A DNA stretch of 64,000 bases, taken from assembly GCF_963675165.1 (NCBI RefSeq), contig NC_087383.1:1312001-1376000 (forward strand). The letters are read 5' to 3'. The notes beneath the pieces are model-generated. The model was not told the DNA's origin, made no database searches, and worked only from the letters and a program-made list of their open reading frames with translations. Position numbers and translations under genes: made by a program. The DNA comes from Halichondria panicea. Taxonomy: Eukaryota > Porifera > Demospongiae > Suberitida > Halichondriidae. Positions 9,029 to 37,642 of this stretch are shown here, piece after piece (positions within the stretch are counted from its first letter, which is position 1; each line of letters opens with the position of its first letter).

Positions 9029-12000
9029 GTACGTGCACCAAAGAAAGAATGCTGCGTAGTGCAATTAGAACAACCAACAGAGCAATGGTTGCTAAAAGTG
9101 AGTCACATCAATTTATGTGCACTTAAAGCTATCAAACTGCTATACATTTTAATATGCACAGGTGCCATCACAATGCACCAAATAAAGATCAGGGCAGGTA
9201 AGTCACTATACGCATAATTATATACCTATGTTACAAGGAAGGTATTCGATATAATGGTTCATGAGCTATATCTGTTTTAATGAAAACACCTCGGGTGCTG
9301 ATGCCTCGGTGGATGTGTCAAAGTTACATAACACAAGTGCTGCAAGCTGTGCTGTGCTAATGCCTCTCGCCATGTTTTGCTTTCGCTCAAAATTATTGTT
9401 ATAGAAGAGGTAATTATAGTTTTCTTTGTTATTATTATGTTGTATATTAAATTATTATTGAATACAATTGTTGACAATGAACTCCACACATTATAGGAGA
9501 GGAACTTAATGGAAACAGAAGCCTAGCTATCTGATGGGTTGATAAATGGGCTCAAGTGGCATATACGGCACCGGATGTAGGTGTGGAGGGGAGGGGTTTA
9601 GGTTAGCAAAGGTAAATTTAGGGCGTTTCCACATATCCACTGCACATCCACTGCCGTATAAGCCAAATGATCCAAATGATTTTCAAGGATAGAGGCAACT
9701 GCATGTTATTGTAGATGTACAATGTAAAAGTTTAAGTTTGCATTTCCTGTTAATGAACACAAAAGTTTAGAGAAATAGTTGTGTATCTACGTGGTATAGC
9801 ATTGTAGTGTTTCGTGGTTCACTAGGACCTCATGAAAAGAAGAAGAAATTATATTCTGTCTCAGAATCTCACACAGAGATTGAATGCGTATGCGCAGAAG
9901 TATATCCGCATAGGTTAAAGTTCGCAATGGCTGCTGCTCTCTGGCAGTACAGCTTTGCAACTCTTTTCTGACTCTTGTAGCTAACAAAAAGCTAGCGCTT
10001 TAGTGCAAGGCTAACTCATAAGTTGAATTGAAACTTTATGCGGACAGATTATGCTACGAAAGATTCTGAAGAGTCTGTAACAGCCTTCACTGCATGTAAG
10101 TAAAATTAGCCATAACTGGAGAACAAAGCTTTATAGTTTGCAAATCCAGGAATAAAAAAATCCAAGAGAACGTGGCTATAGAAGCCTATAGAAACTGTTA
10201 GTTTTCGTCGCATTGCAACCGTTGAGCAGTTACAGCTGGAATACACACACAGACAGACACAGTCAGCTTTATCTTGTGCGGCTACGCCTCGAGGCATAAT
10301 GAAGTTAGCTATGTGCTAATACACACAGTCACGATAATTATCGTGATGAATTTTTGCATTTTGCTGCATGCATGTAAGTATATATATAATCACAGGGAAA
10401 CTCAAAGAGTGGGAAATAATCGATCATGATTGTTGCTAAAAAAGGATGCCAAAAGTACCAAGTATAAAATGAATGGCTGCTGCATCAGTAGAGCCTTGCA
10501 GCTACCAATAGCTAGCGTTCTAGTGCAGAGCTAACTACTAAGTATAGAGTAGGAACACTCTGTGTAGACAAATTTTGCTACGCACTCTTCTGAAAAGGCT
10601 GCAATAGCATTCCAAGTAAGCAAACTAGGCATAACTCGAGAACGAAGCAGCATTATTTGCAAGTCCACAAAGAAAGTGACTAGAAGCCTATAGAAACTTT
10701 TGCTTGCACTCCATTGATCCTCCATTGAGCAGCTGTAGCAGTCTAGACGCACACACTACCATATATCTCGTTTGCGCATGCGCACACCGAGGCGGCATAA
10801 TTAAAGCTTGGAAATGGTTAACTCACCGGTGTACGTTATTACTCGAGGCACGTGAGCGGCCACGGGTATAGTAGCCTGTTGGTTTGTTACCCGATTGGCA
10901 GTTTGTTTGTGTGTGACATCTGAGTCTGCTCATGCACCTGGCTACCATAACACTGCGTTAACAGCATGGATAGCCTTCACACAACAAGTAATTCTGATGT
11001 TAAAGCTTGTTGTCGAATAAAAACGAGAAAAAGCTAAGAAGCTTGAACTTGCACGTACGTACGTCGGCAGTAATTGGGTGTGCCGTTGTAGACCATAAGT
11101 ACTTGGGGGTCCTAAACTCCCAACTGGTCGTATGTTATGAGGCAACCTTCAAACTCACGTCACGTAGACAGAAATAGCCCGACTGTGCCTGACGGAAAGT
11201 CGGGTTTCAAGCCTATGTCAGGATTTGTCTTTGCTGCAACTATAGTTGCAGCCCAAATCAGATTGCAGCATTTCTAATGTGGTCGGTATCACGTCCGGTT
11301 GCGCAACCGCAAGCAAGGTAAAAATTGGTTAACACCCACTTCAGAATAATAGCTGTTATCATCGTGTTAAATAATGCAGCAAGACATCCTGACATAATAG
11401 GCTTGAAAATCCGACCTCCCGTCAGGGATGGCCGGGCCATGCCCAACTCTATGTCGGCAGCTAGCTAACTACAAGCGGCCTTTATTTGAGGTACACTACG
11501 TATTTACAGTTGTAGTGATCCCGTACCAGAAACAATGGAACAGGGTCACTAAAGTAGAAAGCTAGAATTATGATTGTTGCTGTTGCTTCCCCACCCCCGC
11601 AGGAGCCATACATTATTTCATGCAGGCTGCCTTTGTTGTGATCCTAGTTCACAATGCATGTACTATATACTAAAACTCCAATCTCAGCATGCCTCTTACT
11701 CCTGTTACTTGCTTGCTTAGCCAGCATTTATTGTATAACACTCTTTTGGTTGTATACACCTGTAGATCATGTGAACAGCCGAGGGTTAGCACGATGCCGT
11801 GCTACAAGTACGGTGACACCGGTACCAAGTAAGTCATGCGCATGTGCACATGATCATACCATGCAATAGTGTGCTATAATTTATGTCACTGACACTTATG
11901 CAGCATGCACAGGGACTACTGCAGTGGTACCACTCTATCCAAGAAATATAGGTAAGTCATGCATTCATGCATATGCACATAAACTATACCGATAATAGTG

Positions 12001-12225
12001 TTTCACTTTTTGTGTTGCCTGATGTGCAGCTGGGCCTATTATTACAGAGGCTCCAAAAATATACCTCGTAGTGGCAGCTGGTAAGTCAGTATCACCATGG
12101 CCGGCCATGTCTGTTTCACAACATCAATCTATATATACATACTACATACAGTCATAGCTGTTGGTGTTGCGGTTGCCGCAGGGGTATTCCTCTACAAGTC
12201 ATCTGGAGGCAGAGACAGGATCTAG
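9029..12225 (+). CDS. Microexon gene 1: small basic single-pass membrane protein (unknown family)
   Basis: Not a family I recognise. Proposed exons: 9029-9097 (ATG at 9049), 9162-9197, 11790-11828, 11913-11951, 12030-12080 and 12152-12225 (TAG). After the first exon every internal exon is a multiple of 3 (36, 39, 39, 51 nt) and every junction is phase 1; donors read gtgagtca or gtaagtca/t and most acceptors end in cag. The product is about 95 aa. Its N-terminal part is basic with no Asp/Glu (starts MLRSAIRTTNRAMVAK), the middle is Pro-containing (PLYPRNI, GPIITEAP), and the last exon encodes a hydrophobic Gly/Ala/Val helix (IAVGVAVAAGVFLY) and a short tail, KSSGGRDRI. Support comes mainly from exon-by-exon similarity to gene 2 and gene 3. 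The third exon (11790) overlaps a repeat end and is least certain; exons may be missed in the 2.6-kb second intron. Confidence 0.6.
9880..10300 (+). repeat. Diverged copy of the dispersed 'gctctagtgcaaagctaact' element
   Basis: In the large intron of microexon gene 1. Shares the ordered motifs 'agcgctttagtgcaaggctaactc', 'gccataactggagaacaaagc', 'gcctatagaaact' and a terminal 'cgaggcataatgaa' with copies at 10.46, 23.66, 28.09, 30.38 and 37.13 kb. No coding frame is seen. Confidence 0.65.
10463..10802 (+). repeat. Dispersed non-coding element, best copy (about 340 bp)
   Basis: Runs from 'aatgaatggctgctgcatcag' to 'gcgcatgcgcacaccgaggcggcataat'. Related copies: 9.88, 23.66-23.97 (end piece 24.38-24.51), 28.09-28.31, 30.38-30.60 kb and, reversed, 37.13-37.31 kb. 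No tRNA-like promoter boxes or target duplications are visible to me, so the class (SINE, MITE or other) is open. Confidence 0.65.
11188..11426. mobile_element. MITE-like inverted-repeat element
   Basis: Imperfect terminal inverted repeats of about 40 bp: left CCTGACGGAAAGTCGGGTTT continuing 'caagcctatgtcaggat', right 'atcctgacataataggcttg' continuing to CCCGTCAGG. Non-coding, in the intron of microexon gene 1. Confidence 0.7.
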
Positions 12226-12886
12226 GGAGAACTTAAACTAATTTCCTAGTCCGACAAAGAAAACTATGCACTAGCCAAATTCTATTGTGCACTTGAGTAC
12301 TATAGCCATTTGTTCACACAGGTTCAGAACAGTTAATTACCATTCATCAAGACAATTAAGAGTTCATAATAGAAGAGAGAGAGAATCGAACTCTATAACC
12401 GTGCATCAGATGTATATAGGTAAAGTAACGTGACTTTGGTAAATAATATTATTGCTGCCTCGAGGCAAGTAGCGGTTCCGGGCGTTTGGATTGATCAGTT
12501 AACAAGCAGGAAGTCACGCTACTTTCTGGTGCAAGGTAATGCTACGTTCGATACTGACTCTTTATTAGCAAGTTGCATGGCTTGAATCATTAAGTACAAT
12601 GAATAATTTCAGCAGCACTTAAGCGGTCGACATAATTTGTACATCGCTAGATAATACAGAATCCGCGTAGTAAGACACCCCATCCCCTCATCTGCTCCTG
12701 GTACTAGATATGTTTGAATTGTTAGCATCATTGAGCATTGTTAGCATCGTTTACTACTAGTATAGAGAGCAGCTATAATCATTTGCAGTATGTTAGCTTA
12801 GCTAGAATAGCTAATTTTCTTTGTATATCTTCACCGTGAACACACATTCCTCTGTAAAACATTATGAGTCATGACCAATCTCCTCT

Positions 12887-13009
12887 GAGAGAGGGCATGC
12901 AACAGCAAAAGAGCAGAGTTCAAACATGGGCGGATAAATGTGTGAATTTGCATGAGTGCAAGAACTCTGCTCGCTACGTGTGCTAGATAGTGAGTTGCAT
13001 GCCCTCTCT
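12887..13009. mobile_element. MITE, GGGCATGCAAC family, copy 1
   Basis: Left end 'gagagagggcatgcaac', right end 'gttgcatgccctctc'; the inner arms also pair ('agcagagtt' / 'aactctgct'). Copy 2 is at 13235-13397 and a half copy lies at about 30187-30213. Confidence 0.7.
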
Positions 13010-13234
13010 TCTTTTATACGCCCTTGGTATATACTGTAAGAGCTAAGTATGGTTTGAGATAGTGTTGTTAGCGGTGGTTCTAAAGGTAGGAAGCTACTCT
13101 TTAGTGACACATTCAGTATGGTATTTGTGGGGTTCTTGTGGCTATGCAACATAAAGCCTTAGTAATGAAACCACATAAGGATAACGTACACCTGCAAGCA
13201 CAGACTTGTATGGGGTCGTGGCCAGGGCTGATAA

Positions 13235-13397
13235 AGAGAAGAGGGCATGCAACAGCTTGCGAGCAAAAACTGTAAGTGGAATTTAAGTACAGTAATGAGA
13301 TTTCTGATTTTGTGTAAAGTACATGTGCAGATTAGCTATTAAATGCAGTTTTTACTCGCACGTTGGACTAGTAGTGAGTTGCATTCCCTCTTCTTCT
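13235..13397. mobile_element. MITE, GGGCATGCAAC family, copy 2
   Basis: Left end 'agaagagggcatgcaac', right end 'gttgcattccctcttctt'; inner arms 'gcgagcaaaaactg' / 'cagtttttactcgc' pair. Non-coding. Confidence 0.7.
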
Positions 13398-13924
13398 CCT
13401 TGCTTGTATGCATGGATACTAGAGTAAGTCGCCGAACTCTGTCAGACATTAAATTGCGTCAGGTAAAGTTAGTTAGCTCTAGCAGTGTAGTTTGCCAAAA
13501 ACGGGGGTCGGTACGTTCTGCGATATTTTTTCCAAGTGATCACTGTTCCAACTGAAAGTGACCTGGCCTATCCTAGTTATAGTTATTTAATACATGGCCA
13601 TCTGTTAGAGTGTGAAATTAGTTTGGATCAATCTTGTTTTGTTCTGCATTAACAACGTGCATTACAAAACTTTTTACCTGACGCACTTTGATGTCTGATG
13701 GAGTTCAGTGACTTACTCTAGTGCTAATATGGGCCCTTTGCGATCCTTCCCAACACATGAATAAGTTTACTTCCAACTGAGGCTGCATGCATAGCCACTA
13801 TCTAGACCCGCAGGAAGATTGCAAGAAAAGAAGTCACTGTATGTATCTACAGGTTAAACATGCAACCTGTCCTTGGTCAAAAGGTCAGTCAATACAGCAC
13901 CCATATTAACATGTTAATAACAAG

Positions 13925-14110
13925 CAGGAGCAGGAAAACTGTACCCAAGAAAATGTTCATCAAATAACTATGTAAGTCCTAATTAAAGTTGGTATAGTCT
14001 ACGTTACATACTTGTGATTCATCTGACATTGAAGTGACTCACCTATATGGAATAGTGTGTCTGTTGGTAATTGGTTGGGAATCTCATTCTTCATGCTTGA
14101 TCTTTAGGGC
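13925..14110 (+). pseudogene. Relic of microexon gene 3 (first exon and 3' flank only)
   Basis: 13925-13980 matches the first exon and donor of microexon gene 3 (26960-27012), but the frame reads Met-Phe-Ile-Lys-stop because the 'aaaatactat' of gene 3 is 'aaataactat' here. Within about 60 bp (from about 14030) the sequence switches to similarity with the 3' flank of gene 3 (37725-37800: 'ggaatagtgtgtctgttggt'). All internal exons are absent, so block A kept only the two edges of this gene. Confidence 0.65.
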
Positions 14111-14225
14111 CTTAATAGGTGTACTACAGTTTATTACATAATGTGGGAGGAAGCCATCACACATGCCACATGACCAGCCTTAAAAGTGAAGCCATTGTTT
14201 AATACAAGATGTTCATAGACTGATA

Positions 14226-14328
14226 TAGCCTCGGTCCCAGGCCGATTTTTTTTTAATAGAACGAAGTTGAAAAATACGTAGGCGACCTAGCGTTCAATTG
14301 GAGATGGATCGGCCTGGGATCGAGGCTA
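14226..14328. mobile_element. MITE, TAGCCTCG family
   Basis: Ends TAGCCTCGGTCCCAGGCCGA and TCGGCCTGGGATCGAGGCTA, starting and ending in TA. Contains the internal motif 'gacctagcgttcaattg' shared with the 16106 and 19204 copies. Confidence 0.85.
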
Positions 14329-15575
14329 AGACTGATAGAGCACATTCACCCCGTGCATTGTGCATTGAGCTTCATCGCACAGCAGCAAACAGATTACGGT
14401 AATGACCTTATGTATCAGAAATCAGAAATTAATGATCGTGAGCCGCCTAGAGATCAATTTGTTTTTTGCTGCCTTCAATTATCGCCTATAAGTTTCAACT
14501 GTAAGTAGCCTATTACTTTTCAACCATGCACTGTCTCATTGAGCAGAAGCAGTCCATGAAAGTGTATATAGTTTGCTCAAACAGCAATCACTCATTCTCT
14601 ACACCTGCTGACGGGGTAATATGGGCCGAAATATGGATGAATAATATCATAATTATTGTACACACAAAGTTCACTGGATGGCCATTCAGATTGAATTGCG
14701 AGAAAGTGTAAAATTGTGCATGCATGCCCTCCAATAAGCATAGCAATAAGCAATGACTGTTTGGAGGTAACTAAATCTTAGAGGTTCGCGGTTATCGAAC
14801 CCTTTTCAACAACTGTACACAGGTAACTCGAGTCTTGTTTGGAGAGGTTCGCCCTTTCGGAATCACTTATTGTAGAACTGCATATGAAACCCAAAAGTAT
14901 TGTGGAAACTGCACTCACCTTGCACTTGTTTCGAAGAAGACACTATCAATAAACTTGTCAGGACTGGGAGCCAAGTAAAAAAATAATAAGGGTCGACTCT
15001 TCTGCACTGGAGAGAGAATTGAAGTTTGTTTGGATGCCTGTACTACATGTATACCATTTTGCAGATCTAGATTTGCTGACTCTGCAGTTTTGATTGTACT
15101 TTGCAGATTGATTTACTCATAGATATAAGAAGAGCCTATACAGTTTTGATTATCTGCAAAATTTGCAGATTGATTGCTATAATATTAAGCCTGCAGTTTT
15201 GATATGCATTTTACAGATTGACTTGTACACTCCACAGTTTTAGTTTTCGTCACATTACAGGAATACACTGACACACACCATAGACAGTAGCATACACACA
15301 TGCAGACACTTTACCATATTCCTGCGGTTATGCCTACGAAGCATAATAAAAAGCAAATCTGCTAAAGAGTTATAGATAAACCAAGATACATGTACTGTAC
15401 ACTCCGACAGTATCTTAGTGACAATCAACAAACAGAACACGACATTTAGCACTACCATGCTTGAACTAGATTCTACACACATTTTTTTGAATAAGAAACA
15501 AGGTAGTTTTCACAACGTATATGGGTTGAAAAAATAATAATATGTAGGCCTAGATCTGTTCCAATTTTCGTTGTT

Positions 15576-16554
15576 CTAGGTAACAGAATTTGATAGTTCA
15601 TCGTGAAAGTTTTCGTAGGCTGGATTGTCTAATTCTCTTTCTGTGAATCCATGATTGTATTCATCCACACTGTTACCTGTGCAGCCATAAAACAACATCA
15701 ATGACACGAATCTAAAGTCTATTTGTGTTGAGTTCGACCTTCATAAAGTTGTCATAACTTTGTCATACTTCACTGAAATTCAAAGTTTCATGAATCCAAT
15801 AGTATATACCATTGGATTCCTTGTTAAAAAGCGCTTCTATCTATATACTGTAGAGCTGATAAGCTCCAACCACTAAAAGTTAGCATTTTCCATGTAGAAG
15901 TCCCAGGCATACTTGTCCACCACATAAAGCATAAATGAAGCCATAATTGACCACATACCTTCCGGGGGGGGGGGGCGAACTCAACGCAAATAGACTTTAG
16001 TTTCAAACATGGGCTGGCATGTACTCTTCGGTACTGCACAACTTCATACTGTGTACCACACATCATCAAGCTGCTTACTGAACTTTGTGATCACATAATT
16101 ACCATTAGCCTCGTTCTCGGGCCGAGTTGTTTCCAAATAATGTTAGGTCGCCCAACTAGAACGCAGAGCTATTTTTGTGATTACGGCCGCTTTACAGAGA
16201 AATATCTACACGTATACGTTCAGTTTTACTAGTCATTGGAATTTGCCAAAAGAGCGAATTCCAACCACGCCCAGGTACAATCTTCCACAGGCCTAGTTGA
16301 CGACCTAGCGTTATTTTAGAGACAATTCGGCCTGGGGACGAGGCCAAATGATCACGTGATACACGATTGTATTTGGTATCTACAAAGATTATTTATCCTA
16401 GTGGCACTGTGTGCCAGTTTGTACTCAATATATATACTTTAATAATCATAGCTATACAATTTCTTACTATGTATCTCTTTCTGTTTACGTCGTTTGATAC
16501 AGGTGATGAGTCCCCCCATCACCATAGCAGCCTCACCAGATGATAGACTAGTAG
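15576..16554 (-). CDS. 3' end of a membrane-protein gene with an NPAY tail (two exons, block C)
   Basis: Unrecognised gene. Exon 16554-16468 (87 nt, phase 1 to phase 1) encodes ...SSGEAAMVMGGLITCIKRRK..., a short hydrophobic stretch followed by a basic stop-transfer-like cluster. Exon 15676-15576 encodes a 32-residue acidic tail with ERELDNPAYENFHDEL and a TAG stop. NPAY fits an NPxY sorting/phosphotyrosine motif. GT-AG borders and phases agree. No upstream exon of the same gene is recognisable; PMS1 pseudo-exons come next. The block D copy carries a frameshift, so this is the intact version. It may still be only a gene fragment. Confidence 0.4.
15713..16001. mobile_element. MITE-like element with 23-bp inverted repeats
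   Basis: Left end AAAGTCTATTTGTGTTGAGT continuing TCG, right end CGAACTCAACGCAAATAGAC continuing TTT. It lies inside block C and is absent from block D, so it inserted after the duplication. Contains a run of about 13 G. Confidence 0.8.
16106..16345. mobile_element. MITE, TAGCCTCG family, long version
   Basis: Ends TAGCCTCGTTCTCGGGCCGA and TCGGCCTGGGGACGAGGC. Internal 'gacctagcgtta' and 'ttaggtcgccc' motifs. Specific to block C. Confidence 0.75.
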
Positions 16555-16739
16555 CTTCAGGCGTGTACCATGCAGGAAGTGGTCTCATTACTTACCACAT
16601 ACTTATTGTCAGCTATATGCTCTAGAGAATTAGCATACCAATCTCATTAGCAAATATGGGCTCATATACTACATGCATGTACATGTACTTACATGCATGT
16701 AATTGTATACATGCGTGTATTTTAAGCTGCTCAATGTAC

Positions 16740-17510
16740 AAATTAAGAAAAAGCTCATTCATCAATATTGCAAATAACCTGAAAACAATCTTGAGAGTCC
16801 ACAGAGCTAGTGTCTTTTAATAATGTTCTATTAAGGCACTGTTCATCTTGAGCTCTTGTTACTTCCGACGTTTCCGACAAACTATAGACAAAAGTGACTC
16901 TTTGTCAGTGTACAAAAACATATCAGGAGCATTTGAGATTATCATTATGATACCGTTCCCATAGTAGCTTGTTTCGTCTGGCAATCTTCTCCACCTCAAA
17001 TCTTGCGTCTAGGGAGGGGATATTTTGACTGCTCCTAGCAACCACCGGATGTTCTTGACGAGTGAGGAATCTGTCTAGCGAGGGAGTGGAGTGATCTTTA
17101 GGTTTCTTGGCAGGTCTCTCTCCCTCACAGATTGAACCAGCTGCCCTCTTGACAGGGCGAGAATGCAACAGCACTGGGTTGTCCTTCCTCTAAAAGATGG
17201 TAATAGTTTTAGTACTAGGACGTAGCACATACTTTGCGTGTTTGCCTTACAGAACAGAAGTTGGATGAAGTATAGTTGGGTCACTTCTATCTTTTGAAGT
17301 GGTATTGACAATCTTTACTGGCTATAAAAGAAATGGTAATGCATAAAATTAATGGGTGTTCAAATTATCAGCAGCTGTTAAATGTACTACGTCACAGCCG
17401 CCTAATTAGATATCTGCATTTGTACTTTTATGATGCAGGTTACCTCGATTGGAGTGTTGTTACTGTCTGTGATTGCACTCCCTCTACTCCAAGACAGAAT
17501 AGAAGCTGAA
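16740..17510 (-). pseudogene. PMS1 3'-part pseudogene in block C
   Basis: Copies of PMS1 exon 10 (about 16885-16790), exon 8 (about 17190-16955, open: [20 protein letters not shown]...), exon 7 (about 17320-17250, two nt longer than the original) and exon 6 (about 17505-17445). The sequence equivalent to exon 9 is deleted, leaving exons 8 and 10 almost adjacent. Without exons 1-5 it cannot make an ATPase. Confidence 0.75.
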
Positions 17511-17524
17511 AAACAAAATCAAAT

Positions 17525-18692: not shown

Positions 18693-18693
18693 T

Positions 18694-18746
18694 TAGCCTC
18701 GATTCCAGGCCGCATTATTTTAATTATCTGCCTGGAATCGAGGCTA
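18694..18746. mobile_element. MITE, TAGCCTCG family, short version
   Basis: TAGCCTCGATTCCAGGC ... GCCTGGAATCGAGGCTA, 53 bp and almost only termini. A degenerate single end follows at about 18761. Confidence 0.8.
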
Positions 18747-19203: not shown

Positions 19204-19277
19204 TAGCCTCGATCCCAGGCCGATCCGTCTCCAACCTAGCGTTCAATTGAAGACAGATCGGCCTGGGATCGAGGCTA
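19204..19277. mobile_element. MITE, TAGCCTCG family
   Basis: TAGCCTCGATCCCAGGCCGA ... TCGGCCTGGGATCGAGGCTA with internal 'cctagcgttcaattga'. Near-perfect ends suggest recent activity. Confidence 0.85.
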
Positions 19278-22862: not shown

Positions 22863-22988
22863 CAGTAGTTGATTGCAAAAGGGTAAAATTTTCTGCTGAT
22901 TTGGTTCATTTGCAAAGGTTTTTCACCAACATATTCTAGTAATACGGTATAATATACTCTATAACAATAAGCATTATTACCACAACAG

Positions 22989-24964
22989 GTGCCAAAGCAA
23001 GAAATGCTACCCACTAAAATTATAACAGCAGCTGGCAGAGCTGTGATTGCCAACAGTGAGTCACCATCAATTCATGTGCACCTATAGCTATCAATAGCGT
23101 CAGGAGTGCAGCTTGTTTAGATGCATGTTCACCTCGTACTCATATATATGCATGAAAGTTACGACACTTACGCGTACGTACATTTTAATACGCACAGGTT
23201 CTAGAATTATAAAGAGTATGAGGCCATCAGGTAAGTCATTATACACACCATGTTACAAGAGATTTCGATATTATACTATCGATTTCAGGCACATTTTGTG
23301 TTCATGTGCACCTATAGCTATCAATAGTGTCAGGAGTGCAGCTTGTTTAGATGCATGTTCACCTCGCACTCATATATATGCATGAAAGTTACGACACTTA
23401 TGCGTATGTACACGTACATTTTAATACGCACAGGTTCTAGAATTATAAAGAGTATGAGGCCATCAGGTAAGTCATTATACACACCAAATTGTCTATATTT
23501 CTATATTATACTATCGATTTCAGGCACATTTTTTGAAAGCACCACGTGTGCTGATGCCTCGGTGTGGATGTGTCAAAACTACATAACATAAAGCTAGCTA
23601 TTGCTAATACATGCACACATGATACCATGATGCATGCAAGCATAATCACGGGGAAACTCAAAGAGTGGGGAATGATCGACCTGTTAAAAAATATGTCAGA
23701 AGTTCAAAGTCTAAAATTAATGGCTGCTGCATCAGTAGAGCTCTGCAGCTACCAATATAGCTATAGCGTTCTAGTGCAAAGCTAACTACTAAGTAGAATA
23801 TAGCAACACTCCATGGACAAGTTTTGCTACGTACTCTTCTGAAAAGGCTGCAATGGCATTCCAAGTACACAAAACTAGGTATAACTCGAGGACAAAGCAT
23901 TACTTTGCAAATCTACGAATCAAAATCAAGTAACTAGAAGCCTATAGAAACTCTTATACCTACACTTCATTACTCGAGGCCGTACCATGGCCAGCGGGTA
24001 TAGTAGTCGTCTGGTCTGTTTGTTTGTGACTGGTGAATCTACTCACCTAGCTGGGTGCCATGGCGCTGCGTTTACAGCACGAATAGCCTCCACACAACAG
24101 GTTATTAGTTTTAAAAGTGGCAGATTTCGATGTTAAAGCTTCGTTCTTGTATAAAAGCGAGCAAAAGCTAAGAAGCTTGAACTTGCACGTTGCCTAGAGT
24201 AGGAGCAGAGACAAGCTCTACATGCGACCTTTATTCAAGGTAGATCACATATTTTCAGCTGAAGTGATCCTTTACCGGTCTCTACTAAAAGTAGCATTGT
24301 ATACATGCATGTATATAGGTTGCTACTTCTTTGCTCCTCTGCTTTTTATAGATCTATTTATTCAGCCGAGGGTTAGCACTTCAGTGCTCTAGTTGATCCT
24401 TGAGCAGCTGTTACAGTAGCTGTATACACAGACACACACACACAGACACACACATAAACACACTACCGTACATATTGCTTGCGCATGCGCACTAAGGCAT
24501 AATGAACACTTGGAAAGGTGGAAAGGGTTAACTCACTGGTGTATGTTATTTTAACACAGGTCCAGTGATACGACCATCGGTACCAAGTAAGTCACGTGCA
24601 TATAATCATACCATGCAATAGTGTACTATTTTATCTTATGTCACGACACTTATGTAATATGCACAGGGCCTACAGTGCTACCAATACCCTACCCTAGCAG
24701 AATTGGTAAGTCATGCATGCACAAAAATGATACCTAATAGTGTGTTACTTTTTTCTGTACATGTACACATTAACTTGATGTGCAGGGCCTATCATTGTAG
24801 AGGTCCCAGAAAACCTCTTAGGAGCCGGTAAGTCAGTATCACTATGGCCGTGTCTGTGTTCATCTACATGCAAATCTATACATACAGTTCTACTAGCAGT
24901 TGGCCTTGCTATTTTCACAGGAATCATTGTGTACAAATCTCGCAACAGAGATGACAATATCTAG
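22989..24964 (+). CDS. Microexon gene 2: small basic single-pass membrane protein (paralogue of gene 1)
   Basis: Unrecognised family. Exons: 22989-23055 (ATG 23004), 23198-23230, 23434-23466 (an exact tandem copy of the previous exon), 24560-24586, 24667-24705, 24786-24827 and 24888-24964 (TAG). Lengths 33, 33, 27, 39 and 42 nt and uniform phase 1 keep the frame open whichever internal exon is skipped. Product about 100 aa: N-terminus MLPTKIITAAGRAVIAN, repeated SRIIKSMRPSG units, a Pro-rich stretch (RPTVLPIPYPSRIGP), then the TM helix LLAVGLAIFTGIIVY and tail KSRNRDDNI. No acidic residue occurs before the late PIIVEVPEN segment. The arginine-rich N-terminus could be a mitochondrial presequence; this is inference. 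Paralogy to gene 1 is clear in the first exon, the PLYP/PIPYP exon, the GPII exon and the TM exon. Confidence 0.65.
23071..23530 (+). repeat. Tandem duplication (about 230 bp x 2) carrying one microexon
   Basis: 23071-23300 and 23301-23530 are near-identical, including the 33-nt exon and its conserved splice sites. The first copy differs mainly by 'atgttacaagagatttcg' just after the exon. Confidence 0.85.
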
Positions 24965-26985: not shown

Positions 26986-29900
26986 ATGTTCATCAAAATA
27001 CTATGTAAGTTCTAATCAATTGTGTGTCTATATAATATTATTCTCTGCATACATGTTAACATCATTCATTATACAGGTGCTACTACAATGTTGCTACAAA
27101 AAAAGCATCTTGGTAAGTCTATCAAGCAAGGCCAGAGCAAGCTTTTGTATGATCTAGCGCTAGCTAGCTAGGTAATAACCAGAGGATGTGCCAAGCACTT
27201 GATCTCAGGGTCACTAATTGGTTTTCTCCTACCTTCTCTTTCAGACTACTTCTAGCCGAGTTTTTAGTGCCTAAGCTTAAAACGTTATTTTTCAGGAGGC
27301 AAAATTTTGCTCAGGAGCAGAGATACAATGCTTTTGTGCTAGCCTTGATACCGTGAGCGGTTTGTTCTTGAGGTCAACACAAAGTTGGCCTGTATCTCAG
27401 TTTCTGAGCAAAATTGGCAAAAATAAAATAACGTACTCGGCTAGAAGTAGTCTGAAAGAGAAAGTAGGAAAACAAGTACTTTGTACCTCCACTGGAGCTC
27501 AAGCAATTAACCTCAGCAAAAAATATGATGTGGGCGGGGCATGGGTGGATAATTATTGCTCAATCAAAGGCTAATTTCTTGGGCTGCACCGTGCCTGTCG
27601 TACTTCCTCTGGGTAATAACATAATGGTGTATAGGTAATGGTCATCATAGTTGAAACAGTATAATGGTGACCAGGTAATGGTGACCAGGTAATGGTGGTC
27701 ATCATTGAAACAGCATAATGGTATCTAGGTAATGGTCGTCATAGTTGAAACAGCATAATGGTATCTAGGTAATGGTCGTCATAGTTGAAACAGCATAATG
27801 GTATCTAGGTAATGGTCGTCATAGTTGAAACAGCATAATGGTGTTCAGGTAATGGTCGTCACAATTAAAACAGCATAACGGTAATTATACAGTATATTGA
27901 AGGGGGGAAAGAGTAGGGGATAGAGGGATCGAAAATAGCATCGGCGGAACAAATGAGAGGATTGCTAATGCACACATCATATCATGATGAACATTTTTGC
28001 ATCAGGCTAATCGCAGGAAAACTCAAAGAGTGGGAAAGAAGAGTGGGGGAAATGATCAATCATGATTGTTGCTAAAAAGGATACCAAAAAGTACAAAGTC
28101 TAAAATTAATGGCTACTGCAGTAGTCAGTCTAGAGCCTTGCAGCTCTTTTCTCACTCTTGCAGCTACCAATAGCTATCGGTCTAGATCAGAGCTAACTAC
28201 TAAGTAGAGTAATAACACTCCATGGACAAGTTTTGCTACACACTCTTCTGAAAGGCTGCAATGGCATTCCAAGTAAGCAAAACTAGGCATAACTGACAAG
28301 CAATGAACAATAGTTTTATATCCGCAAGATAGTGTTGAGTTATAGTATTACCAACCAGCTCTCTTTAGTAGCGTGGGAGTGAGAGAAACATTTGGTTACT
28401 CTGGGCATACCGTTCTGTCGTCGGACGCAATATGTAGATTAGTTTTGCAAGTGACTTATCCACAAGAATGTAACGCCTATTTCATATAGCTTTCAAGAGG
28501 AGACTTTATCCACTGAGCTACTCAGGAAAAGTACCTGTTTTCAAGGAGCTCTAAAGTATAACTCGCTTCCACACGAGCTCAAGAGATAACAACAGTACCA
28601 GCATTCAAGAACAGTGTACACAAACTGTACATGTATAACTGCAACTAAACTAAAAGACTATTTTCTAAGGAATTTTTGTTTGTTTGCGTTTACAGGACAT
28701 GCATGAAAACCCACACTGTGGATCAGAGGAGGTACGACATGCAGGATCAATTGTCTAATTATAAGACTTGATTAGCTGACTCAGCATTAATAAACCTACT
28801 AGGCCTACATGTGAACGGAATGTCTTAATCAAGCCAATCGATCCTGCATGTCGTAGTACCTCTGACTGTGGATGCAGCATCCCTGCCCAAATACAGGCAG
28901 GGCAGTTTCTATTTTACAAACTATCTATCAATTCTAAGACAACTAGAGCACTTAAGTGCTAACCCTCGGCTGTTGACATGAATAAATAGATCTATAATAA
29001 CCAAGAGTGTTCAGTTAAGTTATAGTTCAGTAAAGACGGTAAAGGATCACTTCAGCTGCAAATAATTATGCAGATGTACCTCGAATAAAGGTCGCGTTGC
29101 CAACGTGCTTCTTTCTGCCATTGCTAAAACTAATAACTTGTTGTGTGAAGGCTATCCATGCTGTAAACGCAGTGCTATGGTAGCCAGGTAGGCAGACTCA
29201 CAAATTATAAACAGACAAACAAACAAACAAGTCCAATCGACTACTATATCCCCACCCGCTGGCTGCGGGTAACAATTCTATTTAGTGCGCATTAAATTGT
29301 GGGCAGTTCTATTTTTAAATTGTGGGTTATTAACTGCATAGCTAACACATGGTTAACAGTACAGTCAAGGAGCATGAAGTCAAATAAGTACGTAATTAGG
29401 ATGTGGTCAAAATCTGTGTATGCGCCCCTTGAACAAACAAGGGCCTTACACCAAACCAGTCTAAAGTTGCCCGCAATCAGTACATGTACCTATCAATTGT
29501 TTAATATCACATGCACATACAGGTGCCATTATAATGATGCAAACAAAGCGTCTCAAAGGACCAGGTATCTATAGCATGTCACACTTGCATGCATTTTACT
29601 TAACATGTACAGGTGCCGCGCAAACAAGATTCAAGGAATTCAGTAAGTCAGTACAATTAAGTATGTACACCTAGCTACTAATATAGCTAGCCTCAAGACC
29701 AGGTAACTCTCGAAGCTAACTAATAGTGTGTCCATGAAAATACATGTTAATGTACACACAGGTGCTTTGGTGTGGCAAACAATGCATCTCAAGGGGTTAG
29801 GTAAGTCAGCACGTGCAGTATGAATAGCATGTCTATGTTCACTTTTGTATACTAACACTGATGCATTATTATACAGGCGTTATAGTGGTGCGAAGAAAAT

Positions 29901-32900
29901 ACCTCGTCCTGTCGGCTGCATTGGGTAGGACAGTATCAATATATCACTATAATTATATAAAAAATGATGGTCGTGCCAAGCCAACTTAATTACAATTACA
30001 TGCTTCACTGATGCCCACGCGCGGGTCTCAAAAACCAACACCCATCCACTCCCTACCTTTAATATTTGTTACCACAATTTATCAGTGCGGTTTAGGGAAG
30101 CCTAAAAATGTCTGATGCTCTAACTAGCAAGCAGAAAATATTACCGACGAAATGTCTCAATATTGCTAGCTACGTGTACTGATAGTGGAGTTGCATGCCC
30201 TCTCTTCTTTTAGAAAATGCTTGTCACAAATGGTGCAATCTGATTGGTTACTGAGAGGTCCTTTATTTCACTGAGAGACCTCAGTAGAGGTCCATTATAT
30301 GTACTTGCCTATGGAAATTTATGTTGAAGTCATAGTAACCATGATGCAGTGCATCATTAAAAATTAAAAGTGTTTGTGTTCTGCAGTGCTGCTTTTATCT
30401 CACTCTTGCAACTACCAATAGCTAGTGCTCTAGTGCAGAGCTAATTACTAAGTAGAATAGCAACTTTCTATTAGCAGTTCTTGCTATGCATGATTCTCAA
30501 GAGACGGAAATGGCCTCAATGTGAGTTTTTTTTATGTAGACTTAGCCAGAGCGAAGCTTTAACGTTGCTTGAGACTTGTAGAAACTATTGGTTGCAAAGT
30601 CTTCTTTGTGTTAATATAGCTTAGCTTGCTAGCGCTATTCTAAATCAGTTATAGGCCTCATCCAACGGTCACTATGGGATTATGAGACCCTCAGGCCCTT
30701 AGTAGCACCCTCGCTGCGCTACAGCCTCGGGCCCTCGGGGTCTCATAATCCCATAGAGACCTTGGATTCAGTCTATAACTATTATTTATAAGCCCTTGAT
30801 AATACCTTGTAGTTTTTTGTACAGAGATTAAAGGAAAAACTGTGCTAACAAATGCCATAGACTAGGATCCAGAGGACACGCCGTTAAGATCACGTGGCTG
30901 CTACGTCTTGATTGAAGGCAAGAAAGACAAAAAAGTCGTTAAAAATGCATTCCAATGACAACATTCAACTGGTGGCAAGTAAGCGCCATAAAGAGACAAG
31001 TTTAGAGCATAAAACTCCGTGAATTTGTTGTTGGCTAGTAGCTAGAGTTTTACAAGTAGAGATTAGATTTGTTGTAAGAACCACGGCTCAGATGTTGGCA
31101 GTGATCCTATCCTGAATGCAGGCACAGAATACTTATTAAAACAGAATTACACTAATATCTCAAAGTCTAAGTGGTTGAAAAGCTTTCACATCAGTATAAG
31201 CCCAGCAATCAAGCGTGATCAATATTCATGTACAAAGTTAATGAGATTCATGATCCTTTTGGCTAGTCATGTGACCGTGTCGTACTCCTCTGACCATAAT
31301 CTACAACAACTTCTGTAGCTGTGGTTTGCATTTGTTTGGTGTAGGTTTGTTACAGCTGTTTGCATAGACCTTGCAAAATACTAATACAGCCTAAATTCCT
31401 TATCATTACCACAAAATTACCATACAATGTTGCTATGCAAACAACATGTAGTCTTGAGCTTCCAGAACTTGTACATACTAAATGGTACATGTACTTTTTC
31501 TACAGTGGTTTTCCTTACCTTTGCAGGCTATACTGCAAGAGCACTGCAACCACAATGTAGTAAATAATAGTATTTTGGTTGGCTTCTGTTATGTGTTAGT
31601 AACAAGCCATTGTTATGGCCTGCAAAAGCAAACTGTAACTGGTTTTTGGTTTTTTTTGGTTTTGGTTTTTTTTTGTGGCAATTTTAAAACTGCCAAATTA
31701 GTGGACCTAATTGCTGTAGTAGCCTAAGACGTCAAATTAAAAATCGCTAAATTCTGCCAAATAATTATAAATAGCCGCTAAATGTTCCAGGTGTCTCACA
31801 TTTTGTCTGACTGAAGTGATGGTAGCTCTGATGGTAGCTCTGATGGTAGCTCAGCTAACTTGTTGCTTGGTTCATTGTGGCAAAATGATATGAGCTAAAA
31901 CTTGTATGTATAGCTATAGGGAGCGGAGGGCCTGTATTTACTAGGCTCAAAATGGGATATTTCCGAAAGCAGCTTGTTGACCTCAAGCATTATATAGAAG
32001 GAGTGCTGTGAAAGTAGAGTAGTAACCCCTTGAGTTGTGTGAAAAGTCTGCAATAGCCAGTATTTTACCCATCATTGATTTTTGTGATGTGTGGGTGGAC
32101 TAAAATAACACAGACAGGTAATCACTACATTGTGGTTGCAGTGCTCTTCCTGCAAAGGTATGGAAAACCACTGTAAATCATTACCACAAAATCACCATAC
32201 AATGTTGCTATGCAAACAACATGTAGTCTTGAGCTTCCAGAACTTGTACAGGGTTTTGCAAAATCCTTGCAACAGGGCTAAACAGACACTGCAAAGACTT
32301 CCATATATGGAAGTCTTTGCAGTGTCTGTTTAGCCCTGTTGCAAGGATTTTGCAAAACCCTGTACATACATGTAGTGTTTGGTAATTCAACAGCTACTAT
32401 AATCACATGATGTTGGGTGTGTCATGTAACTATAAATACATTCATAGTAGTTGTAGGGATTCCTTTTAACCAAGCATTTCCCCCAGGGCAGTATATTAAT
32501 GACCGTGGCATGGTATATGGTCAGGAGTGCATGAATTGGAGCACCAACTCCCACGCACATTCCATTCTACACTTTGCTCTGATGTATTAGTTTCCTATAG
32601 CAAAATGTAAAAGGGTGGTAGAGTCAATGGGACATTCACGTATTCACATATAGTTCTGTAAATGATGAAGAACATAACATACTATCTTGTAGAGATTTAC
32701 TAAACATAATTATCTATTATACTCGTGCTATTACACAGTTTATCAAAACACATGCGTATACACATGCAGTCACTAAGTGCATTGTAGTTTGTAGGACGAT
32801 ACATCAACGGAGATTTGAAACACTAGGCAGTCGTCTTTGAGATACTGATAGTTCTTGGTAGCATTGAATCTAAGCTCTTCATGAGAAATGAAACCCTAGC

Positions 32901-35900
32901 TGGTCTTCACTATAAGGGTCTGCTTCAATATTGACTTGTGATGATGGTTGTTGTCTTCCAACTGATTTAGTAGTTAAATTGTAACCGTTCCTTTGAAGGG
33001 GAACTCTAAAGCATCAAATTGCCCATCACTTGCCATGTATACAAACACTGAGATGTGAGTACCTGTGCCCTCATCAACACCGTGGACATCCACAACAACG
33101 GACATTTTATGTCCTCCATTATGAGAATAGAAATGTGGACTCTCGTAAATATTAATCTTTCTAGTATATTCTGTCAGCTTAAATGTAAATGGTGCATGCA
33201 ATGTTGTTTTTTGTCTCATTATCTTTACTTGTACACTTGACGTTGTTGAGCGAACATTTATAAGCTGAGCTGGTGTGAAGGTTTTAGTTCCCATGCATAT
33301 CTCCGACAGTTTGGGCAGTCTCTGTTCTTTCTTATACTGGTCGATACAGCTTCTACATAGATTTTCCCACAGCCCCCGTCCCCATGTTGTTGAGGGTTCC
33401 TGGCCACACACAGGCAAATCAGACACTTGAGGTCATCAGAGGGCTCCTCCACAAACTGGTAGTCATAGCCTCCAGAGCTGGACTTAGCACTAGATCTAGA
33501 CTTTTTCAAATTTTTTGGCAGTCTATACGATATTAATTATGACATCATCACTGTTTATGCTATAATCTTTGATTTTTCCCTTAGGGGAAAGCCGTCTACT
33601 GGGACACTTGGGTTGGTGTTGTTGTGGTAACTCAGTGGGCTACTGTAATCTGTTAGGTTCACATTACAACATTGCTACAGCTGTTTGCATAGACCTACTA
33701 AATCCTTATCATTACCACAAAACCACCATACAATGTTGCTATGCTAACAACATGTAGCCTGAGCAATGATGGCTTCCAGAACTTGTATGAATGTACTGTA
33801 CTTTTTGAAGTCTAACATTTTCACAAAAATGGGTAATCTGCGAGATCCTCGAAAATTACCAGCTATAAGGTGGTATCAATGGTAGATGCTCTTATCTACT
33901 CTTGGTGGTATGGAAACTCACATACAAATTATGGTGAGGATTTGAAGTGGAGAATGGGCTGGGACTAGCTTGCATATCCAGCAGATATACCTGTATAGCT
34001 ACTAATATGTCCACTGCATGTATGGAAGCAGTGTGAACAGGATGCAAGTCTCAGCATAAAGCGTTAATTGGTAGATCCCCACTGTTCATACTCATGAACA
34101 GTGGGGATCTCCCATAGTCTAGTTCTAATTGTTTGCATAGCAACATTGTATGGTGGTTTGTGGTAATGCAGTGAGTGATTTAGTACTTTGCAAGGTCTGT
34201 GCAAACAGCTGTACTAAATGGTACATGTACTTTTTCTAAATTCCTTATCATTACCACAAAATCACCATGCAAACAACATGTAGTCTTGAGCTTCCAGAAC
34301 TTGTACATACTAAATGGTACATGTACTTTTTGAGGGCTAGCTAAACTGCGAGATAAAATTAGACCCTTGAACAAAATTACCCGCTATAAGGTGGTATCAA
34401 TGGTAGATGCTCTTAACTACTCTTACGTGGTGGTATGGAAACTCAAATGGATTTGAAGTGGAGAATGGACTGCATGGGACTAGCTTGCATATACCAGCAG
34501 ATATACCTGTATAGCTACTAATCTGTCCACTGCATGTATGGAAAGCAGTGTGAAGGCTGAACAGCATGCAAGTCTCAGCATAAAGCGTTATTGGTAGGTC
34601 CTCACTGTTCTATGAGTTCCCCATACAAGTAGGTTGAGGGAATGCTCCAGACCTACACGTATTACTAGAATATTTTGCTGGTGAAAAACCTTTGCGAATG
34701 AGCCAAATCAGCAGAAAATGTAACCCTTTGCGATCTAACTATTGCGTTCTGGAAAGGATTATGTGTACAACCCTCGACCTTGCAAAGTTCGCAAATGTTT
34801 GATGCTCGCAAAACATTCTAGTAATACGGGTAATCCTAGCTCTCTAGATTTTTCCCCTGAGCTATTAGGCTTGCCTCCAGACTATTCCCATAGTCTAGTT
34901 CTAGAAGCCATCATTGCTCTTTATAACTACATGTATACTACATGCATGTACATGTACTATTTGTTTGCATAGCAACATTGTATGGTGGTTTGTGGTAATG
35001 GAGTGGTATTTTGCATTTTGCAAGGTCTGTGCAAACAGCTGTACTATAGATAGAACAGGGGAAGTACACAGTCTTGACTGATATTCATGTACAAAGTTAA
35101 TGAGATTATTGGCTAGTCATGTGACCGTGTCGTACTCCTCTGACCATACAACTGTTTTGTTATAGATAGAGCAGGGTAGTTAGAGCATGGGCCATAGATG
35201 CTACAACCATGGGCCATAGATACTACAACCATGGGTCATAGACAGAGCAGCAGGGTGGTTAGAGCATGGGCCATAGATGCTACAACCATGGGCCATAGAC
35301 AGAGCAGCAGGGTAGTTAGAGCATGGGCCATAGATGCTACAACCATGGGCCATAGATACTACAACCATGGGCCATAGACAGAGCAGCAGGGTGGTTAGAG
35401 CATGGGCCATAGATGCTACAACCATGGGTCATAGATAGAGCAGCAGGGTAGTTAGAGCATGGGCCATAGATGCTACAACCATGGGCCATAGACAGAGCAG
35501 CAGGGTAGTTAGAGCATGGGCCATAGATGCTACAACCATGGGCCATAGATACTACAACCATGGGCCATAGACAGAGCAGCAGGGTGGTTAGAGCATGGGC
35601 CATAGATGCTACAACCATGGGCCATAGACAGAGCAGCAGGGTAGTTAGAGCATGGGCCATAGACAGAGCAGCAGGGTGGTTAGAGCATGGGCCATAGATG
35701 CTACAACCATGGGCCATAGACAGAGCAGCAGGGTAGTTAGAGCATGGGCCATAGATGCTACAACCATGGGTCATAGATAGAGCAGCAGGGTAGTTAGAGC
35801 ATGGGCCATAGATGCTACAACCATGGGCCATAGATACTACAACCATGGGCCATAGATACTACAACCATGGGCCATAGATAGCTACAACCATGGGCCATAG

Positions 35901-37642
35901 ATACTACAACCATGGGCTACAACCATGGGCCATAGATGCTACAACCATGGGCCATAGACAGAGCAGCAGGGTGGTTAGAGCATGGGCCATAGATGCTACA
36001 ACCATGGGCCATAGACAGAGCAGCAGGGTAGTTAGAGCATGGGCCATAGATGCTACAACCATGGGTCATAGATAGAGCAGCAGGGTAGTTAGAGCATGGG
36101 CCATAGATGCTACAACCATGGGCCATAGATACTACAACCATGGGCCATAGATACTACAACCATGGGCTATAACCATGGGCCATAGATGCTACAACCATGG
36201 GCCATAGACACTACAACCATGGGCCATAGACGCTACAACCATGGGCCATAGATACTACAACCATGGGCCATAGATACTACAACCATGGGCCATAGATAGC
36301 TACAACCATGGGCCATAGATACTACAACCATGGGCTACAACCATGGGCCATAGATGCTACAACCATGGGCCATAGATACTACAACCATGGGCCATAGATA
36401 CTAGGCCATGGGCCATAGATGCTACAACCATGGGCCATAGATACTACAACCATGGGCTACAACCATGGGCCATAGATACGGGCCATAGATACTACAACCA
36501 TGGGCCATAGATAGCTACAACCATGGGCCATAGATACTACAACCATGGGCCATAGATAGCTACAACCATGGGCCATAGATACTACAACCATGGGCCATAG
36601 ATGCTACAACCATGGGCCATAGACGCTACAACCATGGGCACTACAACCATGGGCCATAGATAGCTACAACCATGGGCCATAGATGCTACAACCATGGGGC
36701 ATAGATGCTACAACCATGGGCAATAGATGCTACAACCATGGGCCATAGATGCTACAACCATGGGCCATAGATACTACAACCATGGGCTACAACCATGGGC
36801 CATAGACGCTACAACCATGGGCCATAGATACTACAACCATGGGCCATAGATAGCTACAACCATGGGCCATAGATACTACAACCATGGGCCATAGATACTA
36901 CAACCATGGGCCATAGATACTACAACCATGGGCCATAGATAGCTACAACCATGGGCCATAGATGCTACAACCATGGGCCATAGATGCTACAACCATGGGC
37001 CATGGGCCATAGATAGCTACAACCATGGGCCATAGATACTACAACCATGGGCCATAGATAGCTACAACCATGGGCCATAGATACTACAACCATGGCTGCT
37101 CCATGGTTGCAATGCTGAGTACAGCTAAGTGATTCTATAAGCTTCTAGCAATGCTGGCTTTGTTCTCAAGTAAAGGCTAGTTTTGCTTACCAGTACATTG
37201 AATTAGGCCATTGCAGTCTCTAGAAGGTTGCTATTCTACTTAGTAGTTAGCTCTATACTAGAGCGATAGCTATTGGTAGCTGCAAGAAGCTGCAAACTAC
37301 AAACCAGTTAATGCACAGTTCTACGCTCGCGCTCTATGGATATTATTGGCCTCGCGGAAGTTCTCGAAGCATCATGTAGCACTCGCAACACCGTGCATTA
37401 ACTGTTACTAGAATATTTTGCTGGTGGAATTTACCAGTACCAGTTTAGGTTTTACGATTTTATTTTGCGAATTAATCAACCCTTACAAAGTTCGCATATG
37501 TTTAACTAGTAATATATACGGTACATATACATGCATACATGCTATAGCAGCAATAACAGGTGTTGGAGTAGCGGTCATAGCAGGCGTGATCATGACAAAG
37601 AGAAGATCTAACGAAAACAGAGGTTCCTATGGAAAACTCTAA
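26986..37642 (+). CDS. Microexon gene 3: related small membrane protein with a very long last intron
   Basis: Unrecognised family, same design as genes 1 and 2. Proposed exons: 26986-27004 (ATG, 6 codons + 1), 27077-27112, 29523-29564, 29613-29642, 29762-29800, 29877-29924 and 37548-37642 (TAA). Internal lengths 36, 42, 30, 39 and 48 nt, all phase 1. Product about 102 aa: MFIKIL..., several exons that look like copies of one another (each begins Ala after G|GT GC and carries a Gln-Thr/Lys pattern: MMQTKRLKGPG, AAQTRFKEF, VWQTMHLKGLG), then VRRKYLVLSAA, a Gly/Ala/Val/Ile membrane helix (ITGVGVAVIAGVIM) and a basic tail, TKRRSNENRGSYGKL. Joining the last exon requires a 7.6-kb intron containing a satellite and a pseudogene, so that link is the weakest point. 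Confidence 0.5.
27615..27890 (+). repeat. 40-bp minisatellite
   Basis: About six units; the core four are nearly identical, e.g. 'cataatggtatctaggtaat' followed by 'ggtcgtcatagttgaaacag'. Spacing between starts (27714, 27754, 27794, 27834) is 40 bp. Lies in an intron of microexon gene 3. Confidence 0.9.
28505..28665 (+). mobile_element. LINE RT C-terminal remnant, second copy
   Basis: Matches 20455-20610 ('ccactgagctactcaggaaa', 'gcttccacacgagctc') with frame-breaking indels. Confidence 0.5.
28724..28865. mobile_element. MITE-like element, about 140 bp
   Basis: Terminal inverted repeats of about 33 bp: left 'cagaggaggtacgacatgca', right 'tgcatgtcgtagtacctctg', continuing inward as 'ggatcaattg' / 'caatcgatcc'. 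Non-coding. Confidence 0.8.
30650..30782. mobile_element. Inverted-repeat element, about 130 bp
   Basis: 'ctatgggattatgagacc' (30673) pairs with 'ggtctcataatcccatag' (30739), and the outer arms 'ttatag' / 'ctataa' with 'atccaa' / 'ttggat' extend the pairing. The centre is GC-rich. Confidence 0.75.
32245..32366. mobile_element. 122-bp perfect palindrome (fold-back element)
   Basis: Every base from 32245 to 32305 pairs with 32366 back to 32306; the centre is CCATATATGG. Arms contain GGGTTTTGCAAAATCCTTGC and AACAGGGCTAAACAGACACT. One-armed or diverged relatives occur at 39470-39540, 40325-40370, 40975-41050 and 41065-41145, all sharing CTTCCATATATGGAAG at the centre. Confidence 0.95.
32773..33509 (-). 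pseudogene. RING/MATH (TRAF-like) pseudogene
   Basis: Starts MKKSRSSAKSSSGGYDYQFV, then a RING-like CLICLCVARNPQQH ... CGKIY in frame 1, LCRSCIDQYKKEQ in frame 2, and back to frame 1 for DCPNC; a MATH domain follows (APFTFKLTEYTRKINIYESP, HFYSHNGGHKMSVVVDVHGV, ALEFPFKGTV), with further breaks before HEELRFNATKNYQYLKDDCL. The TRAF zinc fingers are absent. No introns. Two nearby frameshifts and in-frame stops argue for a pseudogene rather than sequencing error alone. The MATH segment resembles that of the intact TRAF-like gene at 51.6 kb. Confidence 0.8.
35177..37095 (+). repeat. 1.9-kb satellite of about 22-bp units with higher-order structure
   Basis: Basic unit ACCATGGGCCATAGATACTA + CA. 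In the left 60% a longer repeat alternates in, inserting 'gacagagcagcagggtagtt' + 'agag' between units; the right part is mostly simple 22/24-bp units (gatact, gatgct, gatagct, gacgct variants). It begins abruptly at 'gttatagatagagcag' and ends at 'accatggctgctcc', where a reversed dispersed element starts. Because 22 is not a multiple of 3, long open frames appear on both strands without coding meaning. Confidence 0.95.
37125..37315 (-). repeat. Reversed copy of the dispersed 340-bp element
   Basis: Reverse complement matches 10500-10700 ('gcaagaagctgcaa', 'tagcgatagctattggtagc', 'acttagtagttagctct'). Abuts the right end of the satellite. Confidence 0.6.

What the first reader, a model, noticed from the sequence alone, without database searches (positions are those of the whole stretch)
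9029..37642. A family of membrane-protein genes built almost entirely from symmetric phase-1 microexons
Seen: three loci contain 27-51-nt exons, all multiples of three, all with phase-1 borders, joined by introns with nearly identical ends (gtaagtca ... tgcacag). The last exon in each encodes a Gly/Ala/Val-rich membrane helix and a short charged tail. Known: schistosome micro-exon genes (MEGs) use symmetric microexons to vary secreted proteins. Inference: this is an independently built modular family in which any exon can be skipped, duplicated or swapped without frameshift. I do not recognise the protein family.
Basis: partly seen in the sequence, partly recalled or inferred. Interest (0 to 1): 0.88.

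Follow-up and report, generated by a model that had tools for sequence, protein, structure and literature searches.

The report
Microexon-built small membrane protein genes
A small family of unknown animal genes, three side by side and a fourth on another contig, appears to encode short positively charged membrane proteins from tiny exons that could be left out, copied or swapped without breaking the reading frame, a gene design best known from schistosome worms and aphids.

Summary
Three + strand loci (A 9049-12225, B 23004-24964, C 26986-37642) read as genes with 14 internal exons of 27-51 nt, all multiples of three with phase-1 borders. The identical-ends claim is half right: 11 of 17 donors are gtaagtca, but only 3 of 17 acceptors read tgcacag, a word not enriched in the window. 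Outside the window I found a fourth gene, D (C1:4342689-4343912), and a fragment, E; a relic, F, lies between A and B. The last exons of C and D share the membrane core GVGVAVIAGVIM; its 6 DNA differences are all at third codon positions, and over 17 codons silent change exceeds replacement change (p = 0.011). The models are 80-102 aa, strongly basic, with one C-terminal membrane helix and no accepted family match. Module turnover shows in the DNA: an exon of B is duplicated, exon D3 has 40 nt, D5 and D6 lie 14 nt apart. Decay of the family would leave similar marks. Splicing, isoforms, topology and function are untested. It resembles schistosome MEGs and aphid bicycle genes in design; membership in neither is shown. 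Species not identified.

The parts
9049..9097 (+). A exon 1, start MLRSAIRTTNRAMVAK; donor gtgagtca
   Evidence: aligned with B exon 1, a 1-nt gap lies before the ATG and a 3-nt gap within
9162..9197 (+). A exon 2, 36 nt
11790..11828 (+). A exon 3, 39 nt; 5' border uncertain (repeat just upstream)
11913..11951 (+). A exon 4, 39 nt
12030..12080 (+). A exon 5, 51 nt, start of membrane helix
12152..12225 (+). A last exon, helix and tail YKSSGGRDRI, stop
13953..14100 (+). F, relic of a C-type gene: first exon (13953-13971) with an in-frame stop, then 14035-14100 like the 3' flank of C (37729-37800)
23004..23055 (+). B exon 1, start MLPTKIITAAGRAVIAN
23198..23230 (+). B exon 2, 33 nt
23434..23466 (+). 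B exon 3, identical copy of exon 2, in a duplicated block
24560..24586 (+). B exon 4, 27 nt
24667..24705 (+). B exon 5, 39 nt
24786..24827 (+). B exon 6, 42 nt, start of membrane helix
24888..24964 (+). B last exon, helix and tail YKSRNRDDNI, stop
26986..27004 (+). C exon 1, start MFIKIL, words shared with D, E and F
27077..27112 (+). C exon 2, 36 nt
29523..29564 (+). C exon 3, 42 nt, donor gtatctat
29613..29642 (+). C exon 4, 30 nt
29762..29800 (+). C exon 5, 39 nt; its match led to gene D
29877..29924 (+). C exon 6, 48 nt, start of membrane helix
37548..37642 (+). C last exon, helix core GVGVAVIAGVIM and charged tail, stop; 7.6-kb intron before it

Best explanation
A, B, C and D are real, related protein-coding genes for small (80-102 aa) basic single-pass membrane proteins. 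Each has a fixed C-terminal anchor spread over the last two exons (in C and D: YLV, then GVGVAVIAGVIM and a lysine) and, before it, a run of 9-17-residue modules, one per exon; 10 of 19 internal exons open with a glycine codon split by the intron. In C, D and E several modules come close to G-A-hydrophobic-Q-T-K-x-L-K-G-(L/P)-G. Because the internal exons are phase 1 to phase 1, leaving one out or duplicating one keeps the anchor in frame. I think the modules are varied, over evolution as the DNA shows and by alternative splicing probably, while the anchor is kept. The likeliest role is a membrane-tethered cationic segment whose length and charge are tuned by the number of modules. Shown: exon-like layout, homology of the anchor in A-D, excess of silent change in C/D, exon duplication in B, broken or crowded modules in D. 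Inferred: splicing as drawn, isoforms, topology, role.
For: Exon models; excess over shuffles; gene D found by a genome search with C DNA, same order of start exon, modules, helix; C/D helix core 12 of 12 residues identical with 6 nucleotide differences, all at third positions; C/D last exon over 17 codons dN 0.148, dS 0.842, Fisher p 0.011, and over four exon pairs dN 0.26, dS 0.68, p 0.0065; one strong hydrophobic stretch per model, at the C-terminus, and 8-12 K/R against 0-2 D/E before it; two identical exons in B in a tandem duplicated block; in the printed blastn alignments of A against B 6 of 6 gaps inside exons 1, 4 and 5 are 3 nt long.
Against: No transcript data. The 12-codon core was picked because its residues are identical; over 17 codons third positions hold 7 of 12 differences, binomial p 0.066. 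Fragments E and F, the 40-nt exon D3, the 14-nt gap between D5 and D6 and the repeat at the A3 acceptor show decay in the family. A/B exons are not more conserved than introns, 130 of 189 against 152 of 192 sites, and their silent and replacement changes do not differ significantly, p 0.15. D/E exons are not significantly more conserved than the rest, 89 of 106 against 452 of 589, p 0.13. MAFFT without codon steps places gaps otherwise than blastn: inside A exons 6, 3, 2 and an end gap of 72. Four of six C donors are not gtaagtca, and C needs a 7.6-kb last intron holding a minisatellite and a MATH-domain gene piece.
Confidence: 0.5

Rival explanations
1. An ordinary small membrane-protein gene family that happens to have many short exons. 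Splicing is constitutive, the symmetric phases reflect exon duplication in the past, and no isoform diversity is made.
For: Only four complete copies were recognised in the genome; C/D dN/dS is about 0.38 over four exon pairs, which suggests constraint; nothing shows alternative splicing.
Against: D cannot be read with all modules: exon D3 has 40 nt and D5 and D6 are 14 nt apart, so some modules must be skipped if D makes a protein.
Confidence: 0.27
2. A decaying gene cluster: the family coded for proteins until recently, but some or all copies are now pseudogenes.
For: F has an in-frame stop after four codons and has lost its modules; in E I found exons 1-3 only, exon 2 shifted out of frame in its second half; D3 breaks the frame; the A3 acceptor overlaps a repeat; A/B exons diverge at least as fast as introns.
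Against: Last exons of A, B, C and D are all open to a stop at the end; C/D silent change exceeds replacement change.
Confidence: 0.2
3. Chance splice-like words in an A+T-rich, repeat-rich stretch, no gene.
For: TGCACAG is not enriched; 7 of 10 donors also fit phase 2.
Against: Shuffles give at most 1 such exon against 10; an independent locus on another contig repeats the layout and the membrane core.
Confidence: 0.03

Closest known systems
Schistosome micro-exon genes (MEGs)
   Same: Most of the coding region in very small symmetric exons that allow in-frame variation; small proteins, secreted or predicted to be anchored in the plasma membrane; few conserved motifs (start of abstract and passages of PMC4350168; start of abstract and passages of PMC10526429).
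   Different: No comparison with MEG sequences was made. All MEG products are said to have a signal peptide, which is also the most conserved part; A and B show no hydrophobic start and C and D only a short one by hydropathy. The conserved part here is a C-terminal helix.
Aphid bicycle genes
   Same: Many small internal exons almost all of one phase; orphan proteins (start of abstract and passages of PMC9168663).
   Different: Bicycle exons are phase 2, about 17 per gene, many with signal sequence and CYC motif; here phase 1, 4-5 internal exons, at most one cysteine.
Tropoelastin gene (recalled; two searches found no paper on its exons)
   Same: From memory: small in-frame exons with phase-1 borders, a split glycine codon at exon ends, Gly/Ala/Val-rich segments and Lys-bearing segments, exon skipping.
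   Different: From memory: secreted matrix protein, far longer, no membrane anchor.

Membership tests
Schistosome MEG | most of the coding region in very small symmetric exons | tested here: met
   18 of 19 internal exons of A-D are multiples of three, 27-51 nt; D3 has 40 nt. Exon borders are predicted, not seen in RNA.
Schistosome MEG | N-terminal signal peptide | tested here: inconclusive
   hydropathy only: best 10-residue mean near the start is 1.25 (A), 1.75 (B), 1.75 (C), 2.65 (D); no signal-peptide predictor on hand
Schistosome MEG | occurs in platyhelminths | tested here: inconclusive
   species not identified; neighbours (TRAF/MATH, TEP1-like) fit an animal; the first 1,000-10,000 bases of 21 small contigs showed no mitochondrial gene that I could recognise
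Schistosome MEG | alternative splicing makes protein variants | not testable with these tools
   no transcripts
Aphid bicycle genes | internal exons in phase 2 | tested here: not met
   exons as modelled are phase 1; read in phase 2, 3 of 18 hold a stop
Aphid bicycle genes | CYC motif | tested here: not met
   0 of 4 models; 0-1 cysteine each
Any Pfam, NCBIfam or PDB family | profile or sequence match | tested here: not met
   Pfam: best E 0.028 (B), score below the cut-off; first models of A, B, C, revised C and two readings of D, revised A not rerun. NCBIfam: best 0.26, A-D. PDB: none, C and A only.

The most novel reading that the evidence does not exclude
A microexon gene design like that of MEGs and bicycle genes arose again in another animal lineage, for membrane-anchored proteins: a fixed C-terminal anchor, and cationic modules, one per exon, that turn over by exon duplication, exon loss and skipping. 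In the A/B pair the exons change faster than the introns around them, as expected under diversifying selection.
Probability: 0.3. Interest if true: 0.75.

Novelty: new variant of a known kind. Interest (0 to 1): 0.5.

Why it matters
Genes made almost wholly of same-phase microexons are rare and are best known for host-interaction proteins of schistosomes and aphids. A small, compact family with a fixed membrane anchor and visibly turning-over modules would let one test how such genes start, with four copies instead of dozens, and whether the layout is favoured because it tolerates broken modules: exon D3 is a case where, among the readings I tried, only skipping saves the frame.

Tried and rejected
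Signal words as a family tag: a pattern joining GTAAGTCA and TGCACAG over 9 bases has no match in the genome. A first-exon reading of C from 26944 (MHISRK...) was dropped for 26986 (MFIK), because D, E and F share the latter and 26880-26935 matches some 40 places in the genome. A3 from 11766 was dropped for 11790. The long DNA query from D gave 44 matches; one is E, nearly all others cover only about 444-706 of the query, an intron repeat.

Candidate further members: of 84 hits of the module pattern (control 24) and 21 hits of the helix pattern (control 20), 7 places that I judged most likely were fetched besides C1. L015 is a different open frame around the hit; L020 and L021 show no such layout by eye; L016-L019 gave no exon in the scan and were not read. 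The other hits were not fetched; 49 or more of the 84 are one repeated string or close to it. A prokaryote genome scan with C found no relative.

Selection for change in A/B was considered and is only a hint: dN 0.357, dS 0.595, intron distance 0.244; exon against intron Fisher p = 0.026 with a codon alignment that favours exon identity; silent against replacement change p = 0.15. The flank comparison (149 of 171, p = 3e-5) uses flanks that blastn had picked as similar, so it is biased. The helix-only p value printed uses an ungapped count (38 of 69) that the gapped codon alignment does not give (46 of 69); I do not rely on it.

Structure prediction was not run: the spliced proteins are not letter-for-letter window DNA, which the tool requires. 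Mitochondrial targeting of A (MLRSAIRTTNRAM...) was considered from its look only; no predictor was on hand.
Full report
What was claimed and what is there. I rebuilt the three models: A 9049-12225, B 23004-24964, C to 37642. They have 4, 5 and 5 internal exons of 27-51 nt, all multiples of three. In the revised form A3 begins at 11790, because the stretch 11760-11793 is a repeat present on two other contigs, and C begins at ATG 26986, because D, E and the relic F start with the same words while 26880-26935 matches some 40 places in the genome.

More than chance. GTAAGTCA occurs 12 times in the window against 2.8 expected. With an open phase-1 exon and CAG before it, it occurs 10 times on the + strand, never on the - strand; 60 shuffles gave a mean of 0.08 and at most 1. 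Seven of the 10 also fit phase 2. The acceptor word TGCACAG is not enriched. Of 17 introns, 11 have gtaagtca donors, 2 gtgagtca, and 4, all in C, others; 3 acceptors read tgcacag. Elsewhere CA follows GTAAGT in 1 of 32 cases in the rest of the window and in 8 of 42 in 11 other fetched loci, two of which hold E exons. Zero stops in 217 phase-1 codons over 18 exons is not independent, since openness in phase 1 was used to choose them.

Relatives in the genome. A DNA query from C (29500-29960) hit one other place, on contig C1. Reading around it gave gene D: start MFIK, module exons, then a helix exon. The helix core of C and D is identical in 12 residues, and the 6 nucleotide differences in those 36 bases are all at third positions (its p of 0.0014 is too kind, because I picked the core for its identity). 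Over 17 codons of that exon, 7 of 12 differences are at third positions (binomial p 0.066), dN is 0.148 and dS 0.842 (Fisher p 0.011); over four exon pairs dN is 0.26 and dS 0.68 (p 0.0065). This is the best evidence for protein coding. E, on C1 about 26 kb away on the other strand, shows exons 1-3. F, between A and B, keeps a first exon with an in-frame stop and a 3' flank like that of C. Flanks behind A match those between B and C, so the window looks like two copies of a two-gene unit, A+F and B+C (inference). Twelve genome searches led to no further member that I recognised; not every hit was fetched, and the tool warns that matches can be missed.

Anatomy of the proteins. The models are 95, 100, 102 and 80 residues (A, B, C, and one of the possible readings of D). 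Each has one strong hydrophobic stretch, at the C-terminus, and before it 8-12 Lys/Arg and 0-2 Asp/Glu. The helix begins in the next-to-last exon and is completed in the last. A-type and C-type genes share this anchor and differ in the modules before it. Ten of 19 internal exons open with a split glycine codon, none of the four in A. No accepted family match: best Pfam E 0.028, score below the cut-off; NCBIfam 0.26; none in PDB for A and C.

Signs of module turnover. B exons 2 and 3 are identical and start 236 nt apart in a block that is 95% identical. D3 has 40 nt where its match in E has 39; of the three readings of D that I tried, the one with D3 breaks the frame and the two without it stay open. 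D5 and D6 are separated by 14 nt, too short for an intron by general knowledge, so they would be alternatives. These facts fit exon skipping; they also fit a gene in decay.

Rates. A and B are tandem copies. In a codon alignment that favours exon identity, exons match at 130 of 189 sites, introns without splice signals at 152 of 192 (p = 0.026); dN is 0.357, dS 0.595, intron distance 0.244. The codon alignment used exons 1, 4, 5 and 6 of A; exons 2 and 3 of A were left out, because they have no clear partner or border. With free gaps the 3' half gives 111 of 197 against 160 of 206, the 5' part 50 of 85 against 81 of 120. So these exons are not held back more than introns; selection for change is possible, but silent and replacement changes do not differ significantly (p = 0.15), the sample is small, and dS is raised too, which change of protein alone does not explain. 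In D/E the exons are 84% and the rest 77% identical, p = 0.13.

How it likely works. A fixed anchor holds a basic chain whose modules, one per exon, can vary in number. Whether the modules face the cytosol (tail-anchored) or the outside is open: A and B begin without a hydrophobic stretch, C and D with a short one. I put 0.5 on the reading as a working modular family.

Compared with the known. MEGs: very small symmetric exons, all products with signal peptide, secreted or predicted to be anchored in the plasma membrane, apparently restricted to platyhelminths (passages of PMC4350168; passages of PMC10526429). Bicycle genes: internal exons almost all phase 2, about 17 exons, signal sequence and CYC motif in many (passages of PMC9168663). 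The present genes share the design; two bicycle markers are not met, and the MEG markers beyond exon layout could not be settled. My searches of the open-licence library for microexon with sponge and genome (61 papers, 15 listed, 9 of these titles about circular or micro RNAs) and for micro-exon genes with Porifera (none) showed no report of such a family in sponges; I looked there because the gene content reminded me of a sponge, which is a guess. Other animal groups were not searched in the literature beyond.

Verdict. Most likely a real and somewhat unusual small gene family, new variant of a known kind, with splicing and function untested.

Noticed in passing
window 54744-63134, - strand: One open frame of 2797 codons with TROVE, DUF4062 and TEP1/WD40 propeller matches (scanned in two halves): a TEP1-like gene apparently without introns, while the aldehyde dehydrogenase matches in this window lie in separate short frames.
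   Followed up: partly
window 35170-37095: Large 22/57-nt minisatellite (CATGGGCCATAGA...) inside the last intron of C.
   Followed up: no
window 32977-33432, - strand: Piece of a MATH-domain gene inside the same intron; an open frame with zf-TRAF and MATH lies at 51604-53310.
   Followed up: partly
window 15576-17523 and 46520-48104: Several blocks repeated about 30.4-30.9 kb apart at 95-99% identity (D7, D10, D12, D19).
   Followed up: no
window 42848-43166: 98-nt unit repeated 3.3 times with 100% match, so probably very recent.
   Followed up: no
L024 (G000:C37:1-10000) and L031 (G000:C24:1-2500): Two small contigs that look unlike the rest: C37 has 58% G+C and long overlapping open frames, C24 a long repetitive frame; perhaps foreign DNA.
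   Followed up: no
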